Source: Dyella sp. BiH032
GTDB taxonomy: Bacteria; Pseudomonadota; Gammaproteobacteria; Xanthomonadales; Rhodanobacteraceae
Assembly: GCF_031954525.1 (NCBI RefSeq)
Contig: NZ_CP134867.1
Location: 1,240,001 to 1,304,000 of the forward strand
DNA length: 64,000 bases
Direction: 5' to 3'
Shown piece by piece: positions 40,894-51,870 of this stretch. A program made the translations under genes and the position numbers. The notes beneath the pieces were generated by a model. It made no database searches, was not told where the DNA came from, and saw only the letters and a program-made list of their open reading frames with translations. Positions within the stretch are counted from its first letter, which is position 1, and every line of letters begins with the position of its first letter.

Positions 40894-41652
40894 GTGGCTG
40901 AAGTTCTTTTCTACGAGCGCCCGGTGCCGCTCAACCGTACCCAACACAAGGATCTGCGCCTGAAGGGCATCCCCAGCCTGCGTTTCGCGGCGGGTGTGCA
41001 TTCGGTGCCGCTGACTGGCGTGGAATTCCCCGCCGCCGCGCGCGACCTGCCGATCCTGTTCGCCGGCAACAGCATGGAAGAAGCCGGCCCGATGGCCCTG
41101 CTGGGCCTGCGCCAGAACGAGAACCTGTTCGTCGACGCCGACGGCCAGTGGGCGGCCAACACCTACGTGCCGGCCTTCGTCCGCCGCTATCCGTTCGTGC
41201 TGGCTGAAAAGCCGGCGGGCGAGGAAGGCGACGACTTCACCGTGTTCCTGGACGAAGCCTACGAAGGCTTCGGCAGCGACGAGGGCGAGCGCCTGTTCAA
41301 GGAAGACGGCACCGACAGCGACATGCTGAAGAACGCCGTGAACTTCCTCGGCGAATTCCAGCAGCACGTGGGCCGCACCCAGTGGTTCATGGAGCAGCTG
41401 CGCAAGCACGACCTGCTCGAGCCGCGCAACATCCGCCTGGAGAAGGACGGCAAGGCCATCAACCTCAATGGCCTGTACGTGGTCAGCGAGGAGAAGCTGC
41501 GCAAGCTCGACGCGAAGACCGCGCACGAGTTCCTGACCGAGGGCGTGTTCGGCTGGATCTACGCGCACCTGCTCTCGCTGGCGAACATCGACCGCGTGGC
41601 CCAGCGCCTGGATCTGCGCGAGCAGACCGAAGCCACGGTCACCAAGAACTGA
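40894..41652 (+). CDS. SapC family protein
   Basis: 252 residues matching the SapC family: FYE-PVPLNRT-HKDLRLK near the start, then AAARDLPILFAG, PMALLGLR-NENLFVDADG-W-A-TYVPAFVRRYPF, and a C-terminal EEKLRKLD-K---EF---G--GWIYAHLLSLANI-R. Named after a Campylobacter surface-layer locus, the family is cytoplasmic-looking in proteobacteria and of unknown function. The start is GTG 40894 with AGAGG upstream. Confidence 0.88.
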   Translation: MAEVLFYERPVPLNRTQHKDLRLKGIPSLRFAAGVHSVPLTGVEFPAAARDLPILFAGNSMEEAGPMALLGLRQNENLFVDADGQWAANTYVPAFVRRYPFVLAEKPAGEEGDDFTVFLDEAYEGFGSDEGERLFKEDGTDSDMLKNAVNFLGEFQQHVGRTQWFMEQLRKHDLLEPRNIRLEKDGKAINLNGLYVVSEEKLRKLDAKTAHEFLTEGVFGWIYAHLLSLANIDRVAQRLDLREQTEATVTKN

Positions 41653-41729: not shown

Positions 41730-42227
41730 TCAGGGCCGTACGGCGATGACTTCGATCTCCACCCGATAGCCGGGATTGCCCAGCGCCGCGATCTGGAACG
41801 CTGAGCGCGCGGGCAGCTTGGGCTGCTCCTTGGTGCCGAAGAACTGGCGGTAGCCGGCCATGAAGCCCGCGAAGTCCATGCGGCCGCCGTGGGCTTCGTC
41901 GCCCACCAGGAACACCTGCATCTTCACCACGTCGCCCATGCCCAGCCCCATGCCCTTGAGCTGCTTCTCGATGGCGGTGAGGACACCGACCGTCTGCGTC
42001 TTCGTGTCGCCGTAGGCGGCCGCGGAATCCTTCGGCGCCTTGGTATCGATCACCGGCGGCACGTTCCCGCTCACATAGACGGTGGCCTTGCCCGCGGGCA
42101 CTTCGACCGCGGCGGAAATGGGAAAGTCGCTGTCCGGAATCTTGTAGCGCTTCACCTCCTGCGCCTGCGCGCTTGAGGCGGCGGCGAGGAGAAGCACGGC
42201 GAAGGCATGGCGGTACGCATGGCGCAT
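41730..42227 (-). CDS. Exported RidA-family protein
   Basis: 165 residues. A clear Sec signal peptide (AFAVLLLAAASSAQAQE) precedes a RidA/YjgF fold: VYVSGNVPPV near 55, QT--VLTAIEKQLK, VVKMQVFL and PARSAFQIAALGNPGYRVEIEVIAV, which keeps the active-site Arg (PAR) and Glu. RidA proteins hydrolyse reactive enamines/imines to ketones, normally in the cytosol; here the enzyme is predicted periplasmic. It is last in an operon with a cytochrome c and a flavin amine oxidase, the likely source of its imine substrate. AGGAG sets ATG 42227. Confidence 0.85.
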   Translation of the reverse strand: MRHAYRHAFAVLLLAAASSAQAQEVKRYKIPDSDFPISAAVEVPAGKATVYVSGNVPPVIDTKAPKDSAAAYGDTKTQTVGVLTAIEKQLKGMGLGMGDVVKMQVFLVGDEAHGGRMDFAGFMAGYRQFFGTKEQPKLPARSAFQIAALGNPGYRVEIEVIAVRP

Positions 42228-42250
42228 GGGGGAGCTCCTGTGAGGAAGGG

Positions 42251-42700
42251 TCAACGGTGCATCGCGGCGACTTCGTCGGCTGAGATGCTATCCGTGTATT
42301 GGTTGCCGAAGTGAGTGCGGACGTAATTGATGACGCCGGCGATCTGCGCGTCGGTGAGTTTCGCGTCGCGAAGGAAGCGGTCCTCGTTCTCCGGCGCGGG
42401 CTTGAACGCGGGCATGTCGCGCCGGCCGTGCAGGATCACCGCGGCCATGTACTGCGGCGATGCCAACCGCGGGTTGCCGGTGAGCGCCGGATAGGCGCCG
42501 GCACCCTGCGCGCCCCTGGCATCGGGCATGTGGCAACCCTGGCAGATGTTGCGGAACACCGCCTCGCCATCGGCGGCGGCGAGCCTGCCTGCGTTATGTC
42601 CGGCGTTGTCGGACGACTGCGCGCCGGCGGCGCCGGCGACGAACATCCACGCGACCAGGGACAATCCGAGGCGGCAGGTGGCTGCTTGCGATTTCATCAT
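42251..42700 (-). CDS. Small c-type cytochrome
   Basis: 149 residues: signal peptide (LVAWMFVAGAAGAQS) and one haem-binding site CQGCH near residue 56, with a likely axial Met in RRDMPAFKP. The start codon ATG 42700 overlaps the amine oxidase stop (ATGA); a second ATG 3 bases on has better Shine-Dalgarno spacing. It is probably the periplasmic electron acceptor of the flavoenzyme, as CycN is for nicotine oxidoreductase NicA2. Confidence 0.88.
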   Translation of the reverse strand: MMKSQAATCRLGLSLVAWMFVAGAAGAQSSDNAGHNAGRLAAADGEAVFRNICQGCHMPDARGAQGAGAYPALTGNPRLASPQYMAAVILHGRRDMPAFKPAPENEDRFLRDAKLTDAQIAGVINYVRTHFGNQYTDSISADEVAAMHR

Positions 42701-44313
42701 GCACCTCCCGTGGCACGTCGATGGATGCGCTCGATGGCGTCCAGCGCGGACGTCACCGCGCCTTCCTGCCACGCCGGCAGATAGGAGGCATGTTCGCCCG
42801 CCAGCACGATGCGGCCGTCCACCTGGCACAGGTTGTCGTAATGGCGCTCGCGCGCCTCGTCGGACCACACGCCGAAGCAGCCGAGGGTGAATGGCGAACG
42901 GTGCCAGCCCACCGCGATGCCGTGTTCGAATTCCTCGCGGTACTGCGAATGGATCTGGCTGCCGTATTCCACGGCCTTGCGGACGCGCTCCTCGGGCGAC
43001 ATCGCGGTGAACTCGTAGGCGCTCAGCCCCCAGATGTACCCGCCGAGCAGCACGCCCTTGCCATCGCTATGGAAGCCCGTGCTGGGATAGCTAATGTTGG
43101 CGATCGGCAGATCCGTATAGGTGATGCCGCCATAGATGTGGTCGTCCTGCTCCCAGAAGCGCCGCTTGAACTGCAGGCCTACTTTGACGGAAGCGGCATA
43201 GGGCACAGCGGCGATCGCCTCGGCCATGGCCGGCGACACGTTCATCGGCAGCTGGCCGAGGATCGACAACGGAATAGTGCACACGCACCAGTCGGCGCTT
43301 GCGGTATGGGTCGTGCCCGGCGCGGTCGTGTCCTCGTAGGCGACGGTGACGCCGTGGGCATCCTGCTGGATGGCCGTGACTTTCGCGTCGTAGCGGATGA
43401 GGCCTTTCAGCTCGCGGCCGAACGCTTCGCCGATCCGCCCCATGCCGCCGACGGGCTGGAACAGGGTGGTCTGGAATTCATAGATCTCGCCCGCCACCAG
43501 GTGATTCCACAGGCGCGAGCTCAGCACGTCCTTCAGCCCCAGCGGCGTCGAAGGCGTCGGTCGTGCGGACAAGCCGCCGCCCGCATCGCGCTCGTAGCCG
43601 CGGCGATTGCTGCTGCCGTTGCCGCGCGCGTAGGCGAACTGCTTGTCCAGCGCGCCCCACTCGCGCAGCGATTCCAGCAGCAGTTCCTGGTCTTCCTTCG
43701 TCACGGCCTGGTCCAGCTGTCCCTGCCGGGTGCTCTTGGCGAGCAGCTCCGCCACATGGCCGCGGTAATCGGCATTGATTTCGCGATACCGCCGCGGCCG
43801 CCCGCCGAACGCATTCGCGCTGTGCAGGTAGGCGTTGTGGTTGACCTGGACGAACGGTTCCAGCGGCACCCCGAGCTTCTTGCAGTAGGCCAGGATGCCA
43901 TGGTGGTGGTACGGCAGGCGCCACGGTCCGGGATTGAGATACAGCCCGTCGTCGAACTGGCAATGCTGGGTGAATCCGCCCAGCTCGGTGAAGCGGTCGC
44001 CGCCGCGCAGCGACCAGTTGCGGCCGCCCGGCCGCCGGTTGTACTCCAGCACCTGCACCTGATATCCGGCCTGGCGCAGTTCGTAGGCCGCCACCATGCC
44101 GGCGATGCCGGCGCCCAGCACCAGCACGGACGCGCCGCGCGGCGCGCCGTGGAGCCGCGGCACGCCACGGAAGGACGATTCGGACGCCAGGCCCAGGCTG
44201 CTCATCGCCTGGTACATCGCCGCGCCGCCCGCGGCCGTGCCGATCATGCGCAGCAGATCGCGCCGTTTCATCGAGCGCGGAAACTCGCCCGCGCCAGTCA
44301 CTTCGTCTTGCAT
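42697..44313 (-). CDS. Tat-exported flavin amine oxidase/dehydrogenase
   Basis: A 538-residue FAD enzyme of the monoamine/L-amino-acid oxidase family. MKRRDLLRMIGTAAGG (residues 15-30) is a twin-arginine signal. VLVLGAGIAGMVAAYELRQAG is the dinucleotide-binding motif, and RRPGGRNWS and C-terminal GEHASYLPAWQEGAVTSALDAI are family signatures. Coupling to a cytochrome c suggests it works as a dehydrogenase rather than an H2O2-producing oxidase; RidA would hydrolyse the imine product. The substrate is unknown. GAGG lies 6 bases before ATG 44313. Confidence 0.9.
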   Translation of the reverse strand: MQDEVTGAGEFPRSMKRRDLLRMIGTAAGGAAMYQAMSSLGLASESSFRGVPRLHGAPRGASVLVLGAGIAGMVAAYELRQAGYQVQVLEYNRRPGGRNWSLRGGDRFTELGGFTQHCQFDDGLYLNPGPWRLPYHHHGILAYCKKLGVPLEPFVQVNHNAYLHSANAFGGRPRRYREINADYRGHVAELLAKSTRQGQLDQAVTKEDQELLLESLREWGALDKQFAYARGNGSSNRRGYERDAGGGLSARPTPSTPLGLKDVLSSRLWNHLVAGEIYEFQTTLFQPVGGMGRIGEAFGRELKGLIRYDAKVTAIQQDAHGVTVAYEDTTAPGTTHTASADWCVCTIPLSILGQLPMNVSPAMAEAIAAVPYAASVKVGLQFKRRFWEQDDHIYGGITYTDLPIANISYPSTGFHSDGKGVLLGGYIWGLSAYEFTAMSPEERVRKAVEYGSQIHSQYREEFEHGIAVGWHRSPFTLGCFGVWSDEARERHYDNLCQVDGRIVLAGEHASYLPAWQEGAVTSALDAIERIHRRATGGA

Positions 44314-44361
44314 CGATCACCTCTGACGTTGAAAGGACACGCCGCGGATGCGGTCGTCTTG

Positions 44362-44389
44362 CCCCTCCGCGCCACCGGACGCGGAGGGG
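44362..44389. other. Hairpin between TonB receptor and amine oxidase genes
   Basis: A perfect 10-bp stem CCCCTCCGCG/CGCGGAGGGG with an 8-base loop lies 7 bases after the receptor stop. No T-run follows, so it may only reduce read-through between receptor and enzyme genes. Confidence 0.6.
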
Positions 44390-44395
44390 ATGCCG

Positions 44396-46825
44396 TCAGA
44401 AGCGATAGGTCACCTTGCCGTACCAATAGCGGCCGTTGAAGCCGAACGGGGACAGTGACGAGTACTGCAGGCCGTCGGCCCGGTCTTCGTACACGTTCGC
44501 CAGCGAAGCCTTGGTCGGATACTGGTTGGTGAGGTTGTCCACACCCGCGGTGAAGGTCCATTCGCGCCAGGCGTAGCTGGCGGCCAGGTCCAGCAGCCAG
44601 CGTGCGGCGAACTTCTGGTCCTGGCTGCCGTCGTCTGCGTCGCCGCGGCGGATCACCGAGCCGTAGCGCGTGAGGTTGGCATGCAGCCCGAAACCCTGCA
44701 GCTGCCAGTCGCCGGAGAACACGTACTTCGTGCGCGGCGTGGACGACGTCAGCAAGCCCTCGCTGGCGCGCCCGAAGGCCGGCGTGGAAATGCTCAGCAC
44801 TTTCGTCTTGTTGTAGTTGCCGCTGGCCGTGAGGTTCAGCTTGCCCCAGCCGTCCAGATCCATCCGGTAGTTGGCGATCAGGTCCGCGCCGCGCGTGCGC
44901 GTGGTGGCGCCGTTGACGAAGAACTGCGCGCCGGTGACCTGGCTGTTCGGGATGCTCACCGCGATCTGGTCGGAATAGAGAATCGCGTTGCCCACGCGGA
45001 TCTGGTACAGGTCCAGCGTCGCACTGAAGGCATCCCACGGCTGCCATACCGCGCCCAGGCCGTAGTTGGTCGATTTTTCAGGCTTCAGCGGCTTCGCGCC
45101 GAGCGCGATCGCCACCGGATCGGAAGTGCGGTAGGTGCCGATCTGCGCGAGCTGCCCGTTCTGGATCAGCGTCACTACCGATTCGTAGTTCTGCTGCGCC
45201 AGCGACGGCGCGCGGAAGCCATTGGAAACCGTGCCGCGCAGCGCGAACGTGTCAGTGAACTGATAGCGCGCGGACAGCTTGCCGGAGCGGGTGGAGCCCG
45301 CATCGCTGTAGTGCTCGTAGCGGCCGGCCAGGCCAGCGGAAAGCTTGTTGGTCACGTCCGTTTCCAGGTCCACGTACGCCGCTTCGCTATGCCTTCCGAA
45401 ACTGCCGGCGACCTGTGGCGTGAGTCCCGGAAACACCTGCGAGCCGCCCGCATAAGGCGTGGTGGTGCCGGGGATGAGCGTGGTCGGATCGAAGAAGTAG
45501 GAATCCGGATCGCCCGCATCGATCACATAGGTTTCCTTGCGGTACTCGGCGCCGAACGCCACCGTCACCGCATTGGGCAGGAAGCCGACGTGCACGTCCT
45601 TGCTCAGGTCCAGGTTCGCCACGCTCTGCTTGTTGCGGAACGTGCCGGCGTTGAAGTACGTCGGCGAGTACCCGTTCGTGTGGTACAGGTTGGTGTTGAC
45701 GCTGTTGGCGATGTCGAACGCGAGGTTGTTCTCGCCGTGGTCGGCCGAGAAGTCCCAGTGCCAACCACCCTCCGTAGTGCCCCGCACGCCCAGCACCGCA
45801 GCGATGTCGTTGCTGTGGTTGACGATCTGCGGCAGGAAGCCGTTGGGATAGATCTGCGGTACGTTGCGCGCGGAGTTGTAGGCACGGTAGTAGCCGTTGG
45901 AGGTGACATCGCGCTTGCTGCCGTTGAGGTAGCCGTACAGTTCCACGCCCGGCGTGATGTTGTAGCCGAAGTTCAGCAGCACTTGGTACGTCTTCACCGC
46001 CGGGTCGCCGTAGCGTTCGTAGGGAATGCCGCTGGGATTGGGCGCGCCTGCGATCGTGGTGGCCTTGTCGCGATTCTCGGCGCGGTTGGTGTTCATGACG
46101 TTCTGGTAGTTCCACGCCACCCGCATCCACCCCGGCGCGCTGCCGTTCGGGCCACCGAGCGCCACGCCCATGGTGCCTTGCACGCCGTTCTGCGCGCCGT
46201 CGCCCTTGTCCATGATGCCGCCGTTGGCCGTGATGCTGTTGCCGCCTTCGACACTGCCGCGCTTGAGCACCACGTTGATGACGCCGGCGATCGCGTCGGA
46301 GCCATACTGCGCCGCGGCGCCATCGCGCAACACTTCGATGTGGTCGATCGCCGCGATCGGGATGGAGTTGAGATCCACCGGTGCCGAGCCGCGCCCGATC
46401 GCCGAGTTGTAGTTGACCAGACTGGTGGTGTGGTAACGCTTGCCATCCACCAGGACGAGCACCTGATCCGGCGACATGCCGCGCAGGCTTGCGGGCCGGA
46501 TCGCGTCGTTGCCGTCGTTGATGGCGGGGCGGGGGAAGTCCAGCGAAGGGAGCAGGGTGCTCAGGGCGCTGGCCAGATCGGTACTGCCGGTGGCGTTGAG
46601 ATCCGCGGGCGTGAGTACGTCGATCGGTGCGAGGGATTCGGAAGCGGTACGATCGGTGCTGCGCGTACCGGTGACCACGACTTGCTGGAGCTGCTTGGCT
46701 TTCTCGGGTGATGCCGGATCGGCGGGTTTGTCATCGGCCCAGGCCGTGGTGGCGGCGAGGGCATGCATACAGCAAAGGGGTAGCAGGGCAGCTGCCGGCA
46801 GGCGCCGCTTAAGTCGTTTGGTCAT
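44396..46825 (-). CDS. TonB-dependent receptor
   Basis: An 809-residue outer-membrane transporter. A signal peptide is followed by a TonB box-like VVVTGTRS (about 48-55), the plug domain (PIDVLTPADL, RGMSPDQVLVLVDGKRYH, IDHIEVLRDGAAAQYGSDAIAGVINVVLK) and a 22-strand barrel ending YWYGKVTYRF. The substrate is unknown; its place ahead of the periplasmic amine oxidase suggests uptake of an amine, amino acid or peptide. Its own promoter with an embedded inverted repeat lies upstream (46914-46942). Confidence 0.93.
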   Translation of the reverse strand: MTKRLKRRLPAAALLPLCCMHALAATTAWADDKPADPASPEKAKQLQQVVVTGTRSTDRTASESLAPIDVLTPADLNATGSTDLASALSTLLPSLDFPRPAINDGNDAIRPASLRGMSPDQVLVLVDGKRYHTTSLVNYNSAIGRGSAPVDLNSIPIAAIDHIEVLRDGAAAQYGSDAIAGVINVVLKRGSVEGGNSITANGGIMDKGDGAQNGVQGTMGVALGGPNGSAPGWMRVAWNYQNVMNTNRAENRDKATTIAGAPNPSGIPYERYGDPAVKTYQVLLNFGYNITPGVELYGYLNGSKRDVTSNGYYRAYNSARNVPQIYPNGFLPQIVNHSNDIAAVLGVRGTTEGGWHWDFSADHGENNLAFDIANSVNTNLYHTNGYSPTYFNAGTFRNKQSVANLDLSKDVHVGFLPNAVTVAFGAEYRKETYVIDAGDPDSYFFDPTTLIPGTTTPYAGGSQVFPGLTPQVAGSFGRHSEAAYVDLETDVTNKLSAGLAGRYEHYSDAGSTRSGKLSARYQFTDTFALRGTVSNGFRAPSLAQQNYESVVTLIQNGQLAQIGTYRTSDPVAIALGAKPLKPEKSTNYGLGAVWQPWDAFSATLDLYQIRVGNAILYSDQIAVSIPNSQVTGAQFFVNGATTRTRGADLIANYRMDLDGWGKLNLTASGNYNKTKVLSISTPAFGRASEGLLTSSTPRTKYVFSGDWQLQGFGLHANLTRYGSVIRRGDADDGSQDQKFAARWLLDLAASYAWREWTFTAGVDNLTNQYPTKASLANVYEDRADGLQYSSLSPFGFNGRYWYGKVTYRF

Positions 46826-47085: not shown

Positions 47086-47600
47086 GTAGGTTGGGGTGAG
47101 CTTGCGAACCCCAACGGAGGCTAAGGGGCGCCTCGCACTCACCTACTTGTCATTCCGGCGCAGGCCGAAGCCCAGGGGCGACAGCGCTCGGTTGTCGCCT
47201 TATGGCCAGTCTTGTCTCGCCCTCGCGGGGCGAGGGTTTCGCTCTCCTGCCGGAGAGCGAGTTACTTCTTCTTGCTTGCCCAAGAAGAAGTAACCAAGAA
47301 GAAGGGCCCCCTGCGCGGCGCCCTCCGCAGCCTTCGCTGCTCCGGGTGCGTTGAGGGCTGGCCGGGCTTTTCGACAGGGCATCCATGCCCTGATCGAAAA
47401 GGCGGGGACATTCATGTCCCCGCCCGCCTGCGGCGGCCTGATCGTCCAGCCCTCACCGCCGCGAAGGGAACCCGGCAGAGCAAAAGCGAAGAGCAAACGC
47501 TCGCACTAGCTGTGCTTGCCTCGGTACCGCACTTCGCCTTCTCCCCTCCGGGCGACCCGAAGGTAGTCCCCGTGGGAGAGAAAGCGGGATGAGGGGTGGG
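47086..47600 (+). repeat. Long modular hairpin repeat, copy E
   Basis: It has M1 (GTAGGTTGGGGT...), the CGCTCTCC/GGAGAGCG hairpin, the 13-bp GTTACTTCTTCTT stem, CTTTTCGA/TCGAAAAG and the GGGGAC block. The terminal CTTCTCCCC hairpin is broken by an insertion (CTTCTCCCCTCCGGGCGACC...), unlike other copies, and the module ending CATCCAGTGG is absent. The right end is 36 bases from the acetyltransferase stop. Confidence 0.85.
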
Positions 47601-51365: not shown

Positions 51366-51870
51366 CGGCCCCTCATCCCGCCTTCTCCCCGGAGGGGAGA
51401 AGGAGAAGTGATGGACTGAGGCGAAAACTAAACAAGAGCGAGCGAAGCGACGCTCCGTGACGCTCTTGATTTTCCGGGTTCCCTTCGCGGCGGTGAGGGC
51501 TGGACGATCAGGCCGCCGAAGGCGGGCGGGGACAGGACGTCCCCGCCTTTTCGATTCGGGCATGGATGCCCGATCGAAAAGCCCGGCGAGCCCTCAACGC
51601 ACCCGGAGCAGCGTAGGCTGCGGAGGGCGCCGCGCAGGGTGCCTTTTCTTCTTGGTTACTTCTTCTTTGGGCAAGCAAAGAAGAAGTAACTCGCTCTCCG
51701 GCAGGAGAGCGAAACCCTCGCCCCGCACGGGGCGAGACCAGACTGGCGACCACCTCGCGACCACCGAGCCATGACGCCACTGGATGACTCGCCGCGCTCG
51801 CCCCTTCGGGGCCGCCCTCCGGGCGTTCTCCGCACTTCGCGCCCTCTCCGGCCCACGCCGGAACGACCAG
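51366..51870 (-). repeat. Long modular hairpin repeat, copy F (inverted)
   Basis: Inverted like copy B. It has the terminal CTTCTCCCC hairpin, the conserved block, GGGGAC, CTTTTCGA-type, GTTACTTCTTC and CGCTCTCC hairpins and the module containing CCACTGGATGACTC. M1 is absent, as in copy C. Between it and the RDD operon lies a C/A-rich tract (51931-51990: 34 C, 15 A of 60), the complement of the G/T-rich tract seen left of copy C. Confidence 0.85.

What the first reader, a model, noticed from the sequence alone, without database searches (positions are those of the whole stretch)
41730..46825. Periplasmic amine oxidation module: TonB receptor, Tat flavoenzyme, cytochrome c and an exported RidA
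The flavin amine oxidase has a twin-arginine signal. It is coupled (ATGA) to a one-haem cytochrome c, then comes a RidA-family protein with a Sec signal peptide and intact PAR/EIE active-site residues. A TonB receptor lies just upstream. Pseudomonas NicA2 is a flavin amine oxidase homologue whose real electron acceptor is a cytochrome c (CycN), so this set likely oxidises an imported amine or amino acid in the periplasm and passes electrons to the respiratory chain. RidA, normally cytosolic, would hydrolyse the imine outside the cytoplasm. I know of no characterised system with a secreted RidA in this role.
Basis: partly seen in the sequence, partly recalled or inferred. Interest (0 to 1): 0.75.

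Follow-up and report, generated by a model that had tools for sequence, protein, structure and literature searches.

The report
Exported L-amino-acid dehydrogenase operon with RidA
A bacterium related to Luteibacter and Dyella carries a small operon that probably oxidises L-amino acids outside its cytoplasm, hands the electrons to a cytochrome, and clears the reactive imine with an exported RidA enzyme; the same three-gene cluster was already described in a sugarcane bacterium, so this is a new member of a known system.

Summary
In detail: on the minus strand a TonB receptor, a Tat-signal flavoenzyme, a one-haem cytochrome c overlapping it by ATGA, and a RidA-type protein with a Sec signal peptide. 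The interpretation changes in three ways. (1) The flavoenzyme belongs with L-amino acid oxidases: nearest solved structure Rhodococcus opacus LAAO, substrate-carboxylate arginine in 112 of 112 aligned relatives, so the substrate is probably an L-amino acid. (2) The three-gene set is orthologous to the published lao-cccA-ridA operon of Gluconacetobacter diazotrophicus (56/38/50% identity), and Chlamydomonas has a periplasmic LAAO/RidA pair in print; the claim that no such system was known fails. (3) The TonB receptor is not part of the conserved unit (15 of 58 loci). Cytochrome c adjacency is near universal (58 of 58, 52 of 54); RidA follows in 41 of 58 and 25 of 54, mostly with a signal peptide (66 of 69). 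Tat signal plus adjacent cytochrome c is a published predictor of cytochrome-using dehydrogenases; for this LAAO branch I found no test in print.

The parts
42697..44313 (-). lao-type flavoenzyme (Tat-exported L-amino acid oxidase family; predicted L-amino acid:cytochrome c dehydrogenase)
42251..42700 (-). one-haem cytochrome c with signal-like N-terminus (cccA-like), ATGA-overlapped with the flavoenzyme
   Evidence: PF13442/PF00034; single CQGCH at 42530-42544; adjacent in 58/58 and 52/54 loci
41730..42227 (-). exported RidA, Rid3 subfamily; predicted imine hydrolase
   Evidence: PF01042; closest solved PSPTO3006 9bka and PFL1385 9bkc, 49% and 42% identical over the printed segments; Arg141 and Glu159 72/72
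42162..42227 (-). Sec signal peptide of the RidA (MRHAYRHAFAVLLLAAASSAQA; cleavage site judged by eye)
   Evidence: hydrophobic core 2.8; 66/69 relatives at 2.0 or more
44260..44265 (-). twin arginines of the Tat signal (KRRDLLRMIG)
   Evidence: RR in 109/112 aligned relatives, KR in three Novosphingobium
44362..44389 (-). 10-bp hairpin directly after the TonB receptor stop; likely 3' end or attenuator between receptor and lao (no clear T run)
   Evidence: the 60 bases after the receptor stop fold better than shuffles in 15/15 receptor-linked family loci, z -1.9 to -5.9
44396..46825 (-). TonB-dependent receptor; neighbour, not a conserved member of the unit
   Evidence: PF00593 1.2e-43; linked in 15/58 loci; 12/33 close homologues beside a flavoenzyme

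Best explanation
The lao-cccA-ridA genes encode a periplasmic L-amino acid oxidation unit. The flavoenzyme is folded with FAD in the cytoplasm and exported by Tat; it removes a hydride from an L-amino acid in the periplasm, giving the 2-imino acid. The reduced flavin is reoxidised mainly by the adjacent Sec-exported one-haem cytochrome c, which feeds the respiratory chain, so little H2O2 is made. The Sec-exported Rid3 protein hydrolyses the released imino acid to 2-oxo acid and ammonium before it can react with envelope components. Shown here by sequence: gene order, export-signal and catalytic motifs, LAAO-family membership, orthology to the Gluconacetobacter operon, conservation. Inferred: substrate class, cytochrome as acceptor, location and role of RidA. 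The TonB receptor is a clade-specific neighbour.
Against: I found no biochemistry on this protein or its close clade. Nearest solved relatives are named oxidases, and acceptor use cannot be read reliably from sequence (authors' own caution). RidA is not beside the flavoenzyme in 17 of 58 and 29 of 54 loci (in 3 of the 29 it is elsewhere in the locus), and 3 of 197 genomes have RidA without the flavoenzyme, so it is not obligatory. Two loci (L141, L156) have flavoenzyme and RidA but no cytochrome found. Three Novosphingobium relatives have KR instead of RR.
Confidence: 0.75

Rival explanations
1. The flavoenzyme is a true periplasmic L-amino acid oxidase that makes H2O2; the cytochrome c serves a side role such as peroxide handling.
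For: Closest solved relatives are oxidases by name; the flavin-N5 lysine that helps O2 reaction is kept 112/112, but it is also kept in dehydrogenases.
Against: Adjacency of a one-haem cytochrome (58/58, 52/54), while the 7 distant LAAO-like loci show none; [quoted passage not shown]
Confidence: 0.17
2. The operon's selected role here is auxin production: tryptophan to indole-3-pyruvate to IAA.
For: Orthologous operon is needed for IAA in G. diazotrophicus (orthology); Chlamydomonas LAO1 likewise; a Luteibacter raises IAA output of its host fungus with tryptophan.
Against: No indolepyruvate decarboxylase over cut-off in this genome (best 101.7 bits against 946). That test is weak: none of the 14 control genomes passed the cut-off either. 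That Luteibacter made no IAA alone in tryptophan medium (data not shown in the paper); whether that strain has lao was not tested.
Confidence: 0.15
3. An amine rather than an amino acid is the substrate, as in NicA2/Pnao.
For: Same arrangement as NicA2-CycN: Tat enzyme plus Sec cytochrome; automatic names say monoamine oxidase.
Against: The LAAO GxxRxP arginine is invariant in 112; LAAOs head both sequence and fold lists.
Confidence: 0.07
4. The TonB receptor and the enzyme set form one import-and-oxidise module, for instance taking up peptides or iron chelated by the 2-oxo acids formed.
For: Receptor directly upstream, same strand, in 15/58 loci, including three with a clearly different receptor (L034, L056, L085; 33-45%), and in Collimonas L131.
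Against: Stable fold after the receptor stop in 15/15 family loci; 21 of 33 close receptor homologues lie away from any flavoenzyme (one search scored only 5 candidates a genome); amino acids pass porins without a receptor (general knowledge).
Confidence: 0.1

Closest known systems
lao-cccA-ridA operon of Gluconacetobacter diazotrophicus PAL5 (GDI2456-GDI2454; PMC5053998)
   Same: Same three genes, order and strand; flavoenzyme 56%, cytochrome c 38%, RidA 50% identical; Tat motif; RidA with a signal-like N-terminus by eye.
   Different: In PAL5 it serves IAA formation; the passages I saw place the LAAO in the periplasm but do not speak of RidA export. Here a TonB receptor lies upstream and no IpdC passed the cut-off.
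Chlamydomonas LAO1 with LAO2/RidA (PMC10805672; Vallon 1993 as cited in PMC5053998)
   Same: Extracytoplasmic LAAO acting with a RidA protein on L-amino acids.
   Different: Eukaryotic, makes H2O2, no cytochrome partner described in the passages seen.
NicA2-CycN, Pnao and the cytochrome c-using flavoprotein amine dehydrogenases (PMC9396064, listing only; PMC12224317)
   Same: Tat flavoenzyme plus Sec cytochrome c in one operon.
   Different: NicA2 and Pnao act on nicotine and pseudooxynicotine; set found from NicA2-like sequences; no RidA in that paper's text (0 occurrences).
Rhodococcus opacus L-amino acid oxidase (2jae)
   Same: Fold, about 35% identity, GxxRxP arginine and other active-site residues.
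   Different: O2-using oxidase (recalled); its gene neighbourhood was not examined.
Rid3 proteins PFL_1385 (9bkc) and PSPTO_3006 (9bka) (PMC5619798)
   Same: 42% and 49% identical to the RidA, same Arg/Glu; the PFL_1385 chain has a signal-like start by eye.
   Different: Cellular location not discussed in that paper (0 hits for signal, periplasm, secret).

Membership tests
lao-cccA-ridA operon (Gluconacetobacter type) | LAAO-family gene followed by a cytochrome c gene and a ridA gene, same strand | tested here: met
lao-cccA-ridA operon (Gluconacetobacter type) | sequence relationship of the three proteins to GDI2456-2454 | tested here: met
   L185, identified by exact match of six published primers; 56/38/50% identity
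lao-cccA-ridA operon (Gluconacetobacter type) | needed for tryptophan conversion / IAA | not testable with these tools
   no experiment; no IpdC over cut-off here
Cytochrome c-using flavoprotein amine dehydrogenases | Tat signal on the flavoenzyme | tested here: met
   by eye; RR in 109/112 relatives; no SignalP available
Cytochrome c-using flavoprotein amine dehydrogenases | adjacent gene for a Sec-exported cytochrome c | tested here: met
   signal judged by eye
Cytochrome c-using flavoprotein amine dehydrogenases | slow with O2, fast with the cytochrome | not testable with these tools
   needs stopped-flow
Cytochrome c-using flavoprotein amine dehydrogenases | placement in published clades 1-3 | not tested
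   no tree with their sequences was made; clade 1 goes with two-haem c4 cytochromes, unlike this one-haem protein
NicA2 subgroup | closest relationship to NicA2 | tested here: inconclusive
   NicA2 is not among the 60 shown of 119 PDB sequence matches, LAAOs lead; a missing row is not proof
L-amino acid oxidase family | carboxylate-binding arginine (GxxRxP) and LAAO fold | tested here: met
   112/112
L-amino acid oxidase family | activity on L-amino acids | not testable with these tools
   needs purified enzyme
Rid3 subfamily | Arg and Glu of the active site, Ile in place of the RidA Tyr (definition from PMC4433059) | tested here: met
   R141 72/72, E159 72/72, I37 71/72; that I37 is the Tyr position was judged by eye
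Rid3 subfamily | imine hydrolysis | not testable with these tools
   shown for two Rid3 relatives in print
Four-gene receptor-plus-enzyme module | conserved linkage of the TonB receptor | tested here: not met
   15/58 and 2/54 loci; 12/33 close receptor homologues linked

The most novel reading that the evidence does not exclude
A whole widespread branch now labelled L-amino acid or monoamine oxidase is in fact a periplasmic L-amino acid:cytochrome c dehydrogenase, a further origin of cytochrome use in the amine oxidoreductase superfamily, and it has recruited a Rid3 imine hydrolase that is exported (in Pseudorhodoferax perhaps as a lipoprotein) as an envelope damage-control enzyme. This would be amino acid respiration outside the cytoplasm, and would explain why cytochrome c maturation mutants of G. 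diazotrophicus lose auxin.
Probability: 0.55. Interest if true: 0.55.

Novelty: new member of a known kind. Interest (0 to 1): 0.38.

Why it matters
It ties three published threads together: the auxin operon of G. diazotrophicus, the cytochrome c-using amine dehydrogenases, and the imine hydrolases of the Rid family. If right, many proteins named amine oxidase in proteobacteria are respiratory L-amino acid dehydrogenases, and exported Rid proteins may be a general envelope safeguard. Both can be tested with ordinary enzymology.

Tried and rejected
NicA2 as closest relative: LAAOs lead by sequence and fold, and NicA2 is not in the 60 PDB matches shown of 119, so the likeness is one of arrangement.

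Four-gene module: rejected on linkage and folds after the receptor stop. Upstream neighbours elsewhere, ten chosen out of 66 same-strand upstream ORFs: MFS transporter (L091), SPFH protein (L109), ValRS (L121), fumarase (L127), OPT transporter (L155), a two-stretch cytochrome c protein (L151), one TonB receptor (L131), two without a family (L115, L048), and L116, an out-of-frame ORF that overlaps the flavoenzyme.

IAA completion by IpdC: no hit over cut-off, but no control genome passed it either, so this has no positive control.

Literature: nothing found for an L-amino acid:cytochrome c dehydrogenase of this branch or for an exported bacterial RidA shown by experiment (paper searches; open-licence library only). 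Psychrobacter phenylpyruvicus, whose name suggests phenylalanine deamination (recalled), has the flavoenzyme (L160), but no paper was found. The chitin pathway RidA OngD is described as part of a likely cytoplasmic pathway.

Rows dropped before counts: of 63 family loci, 5 with 32-36% flavoenzyme identity (L059-L062, L093); of 70 named loci, 14 that are contigs of family genomes already counted (L095-L107, L157) and 2 distant ones (L162, L164). The named set still holds one duplicate (L114, same contig as L090). The flavoenzyme alignment has 112 rows: 113 loci (58 + 54 + L185) plus the window copy, minus L092 and L149, which gave short products; the window protein is in it twice. The 72-row RidA alignment is 69 loci, the window copy and two PDB segments; L047 gave no start. 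In the RidA signal count the misses were L141, L153 and L154; for L154 the script took a start inside the gene, and the DNA printed shows an upstream ATG with a signal-like peptide. Signal peptides were judged by a hydropathy script and by eye. Automatic starts were partly wrong (one search also ended in an error) and are used only for single examples.
Full report
WHAT IS THERE. The window lies in a 5.25-Mb genome whose closest named relatives by this gene are Luteibacter and Dyella. On the minus strand, in order: a TonB-dependent receptor (44396-46825), a PF01593 flavoenzyme (42697-44313), a cytochrome c (42251-42700) and a PF01042 protein (41730-42227); a SapC gene converges from the other side (40894-41652). 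The flavoenzyme begins with a Tat-like signal (KRRDLLRMIGTAAGGAA). Its stop overlaps the cytochrome start in ATGATGA. The cytochrome has a signal-like start and one CQGCH. The RidA has a hydrophobic N-terminus with an AxA-type cleavage site and keeps PARS and VEIE.

CONSERVATION. In 197 genomes of the family, 57 hold a relative at E <= 1e-60. Of the 63 loci fetched, 58 have at least 55% identity; cytochrome c follows in 58 of 58, RidA within 1 kb on the same strand in 41 of 58, and a TonB receptor similar to this one lies directly upstream in 15 of 58. Among 54 named loci left after dropping 14 already counted and 2 distant ones from 70 (one remaining locus, L114, duplicates L090), the figures are 52, 25 (28 anywhere in the locus) and 2 of 54. 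By record titles these are mostly alpha-, beta- and gammaproteobacteria; one is titled Mycobacterium sp. Five family loci with 32-36% identity and two named ones at 28-35% show no haem ORF within 2 kb, although five of the seven carry a Tat-like motif (L093 is cut upstream); in print, Tat flavoenzymes without a cytochrome neighbour mostly reacted fast with O2. In the two close relatives without a cytochrome, L141 and L156, RidA is still present.

THE RIDA. It is closest to Rid3 proteins PSPTO_3006 and PFL_1385 (49% and 42% identity). Arg141 and Glu159 are kept in 72 of 72 aligned sequences and the Rid3-typical Ile37 in 71. A hydrophobic signal core is found in 66 of 69 relatives; of the three misses one (L154) is a start-site error of the script. 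The four other PF01042 proteins of this genome that could be read peak at 0.5-1.7 on the same scale, against 2.8 here. In L147 (Pseudorhodoferax) the N-terminus contains LLSAC, a possible lipobox (by eye). RidA and flavoenzyme co-occur: 45 genomes have both, 8 the flavoenzyme only, 3 RidA only, 141 neither (Fisher p 2e-32, not corrected for kinship). In five genomes of the Dyella group the exported RidA lies on another contig or far from the flavoenzyme (L165-L169), and in genome G040, same genus as the window, RidA stays beside SapC while no flavoenzyme passes the threshold and no cytochrome match lies near. It is a separable partner.

THE TONB RECEPTOR. In all 15 family loci with the receptor upstream, the 60 bases after its stop fold better than dinucleotide shuffles (z -1.9 to -5.9), with differing sequences; in the window this is CCCCTCCGCG-8-CGCGGAGGGG at 44362-44389, without a clear T run. 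Of 33 receptor homologues with at least 66% identity, 12 lie beside a flavoenzyme, 16 in genomes where the flavoenzyme lies elsewhere and 5 in genomes without it (one search scored only 5 candidates a genome). It is best seen as a neighbour with its own 3' end, joined in one clade. That unlike receptors sit in the same place in L034, L056, L085 and L131 keeps a functional link possible.

PRIOR ART. Rodrigues et al. 2016 (PMC5053998; abstract and passages seen) describe lao-cccA-ridA in G. diazotrophicus: Tn5 in lao stops IAA formation from tryptophan, transcripts of the three genes fall together, the layout recurs in Caulobacter and Xanthomonas, the LAAO has a Tat signal, and cytochrome c maturation mutants (cited there) make 5% of the IAA. 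I found this operon by a published primer, and all six primers match locus L185, on a 3,944,163-base contig; its proteins are 56, 38 and 50% identical to those here and its RidA has a signal-like start. PMC10805672 (passages) places Chlamydomonas LAO1 and LAO2/RidA in the periplasm. PMC12224317 (abstract, passages and three sections) shows that Tat plus adjacent cytochrome c predicts cytochrome-using dehydrogenases, from NicA2-like sequences; the terms L-amino acid and RidA occur 0 times in its text. PMC4433059 (passages) notes that RidA and sometimes Rid3 genes cluster with FAD amine oxidases. PMC5619798 (passages) shows Rid3 imine hydrolysis.

MECHANISM AND VERDICT. Most likely: periplasmic L-amino acid to imino acid by the flavoenzyme, electrons to the cytochrome, imino acid to 2-oxo acid and ammonium by the exported RidA. 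The electron route, the substrate and the place of RidA are inferred. An auxin role is possible but not supported here: no indolepyruvate decarboxylase over cut-off (without a positive control), and a fungal-symbiont Luteibacter made no IAA alone (PMC3782478, passages), though it raised its host's IAA. The system is a new member of a known kind; what remains open and worth testing is cytochrome c use by this LAAO branch and the exported Rid3, neither of which I found tested in print (paper searches).

Noticed in passing
window 47220-47488 and 51461-51731: Sequences on either side of a 4-kb block are inverted copies of each other: arms of 108, 77 and 54 nt, 92-96% complementary. By eye the block holds acetyltransferase-, acyl-CoA dehydrogenase- and SET-like genes.
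   Followed up: partly
L170 (genome G040, same genus): Exported RidA kept next to SapC while no flavoenzyme or cytochrome c match is there; looks like loss of the operon's front.
   Followed up: partly
L165-L169: In five genomes of the Dyella group the exported RidA sits away from the flavoenzyme; in L165-L168 a CysG-like gene lies near it (by eye).
   Followed up: no
L147: Pseudorhodoferax soli RidA N-terminus contains LLSAC, a possible lipoprotein signal.
   Followed up: no
L151, L152, L160: Psychrobacter relatives have a 488-aa ORF directly upstream of the flavoenzyme; the one scanned (L151) has two cytochrome c domain stretches.
   Followed up: partly
L059-L062: More distant Tat-motif LAAO-like proteins (34-36% identity) with no haem ORF found within 2 kb: a natural contrast group.
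   Followed up: partly
L154: Novosphingobium sp. AAP83 has the order receptor, exported RidA, flavoenzyme, cytochrome c, so the same set in a different order.
   Followed up: no
L112: A record titled Mycobacterium sp. KBS0706 carries the flavoenzyme (69%), cytochrome c and exported RidA, unusual among proteobacterial records; mislabelling or transfer not examined.
   Followed up: no
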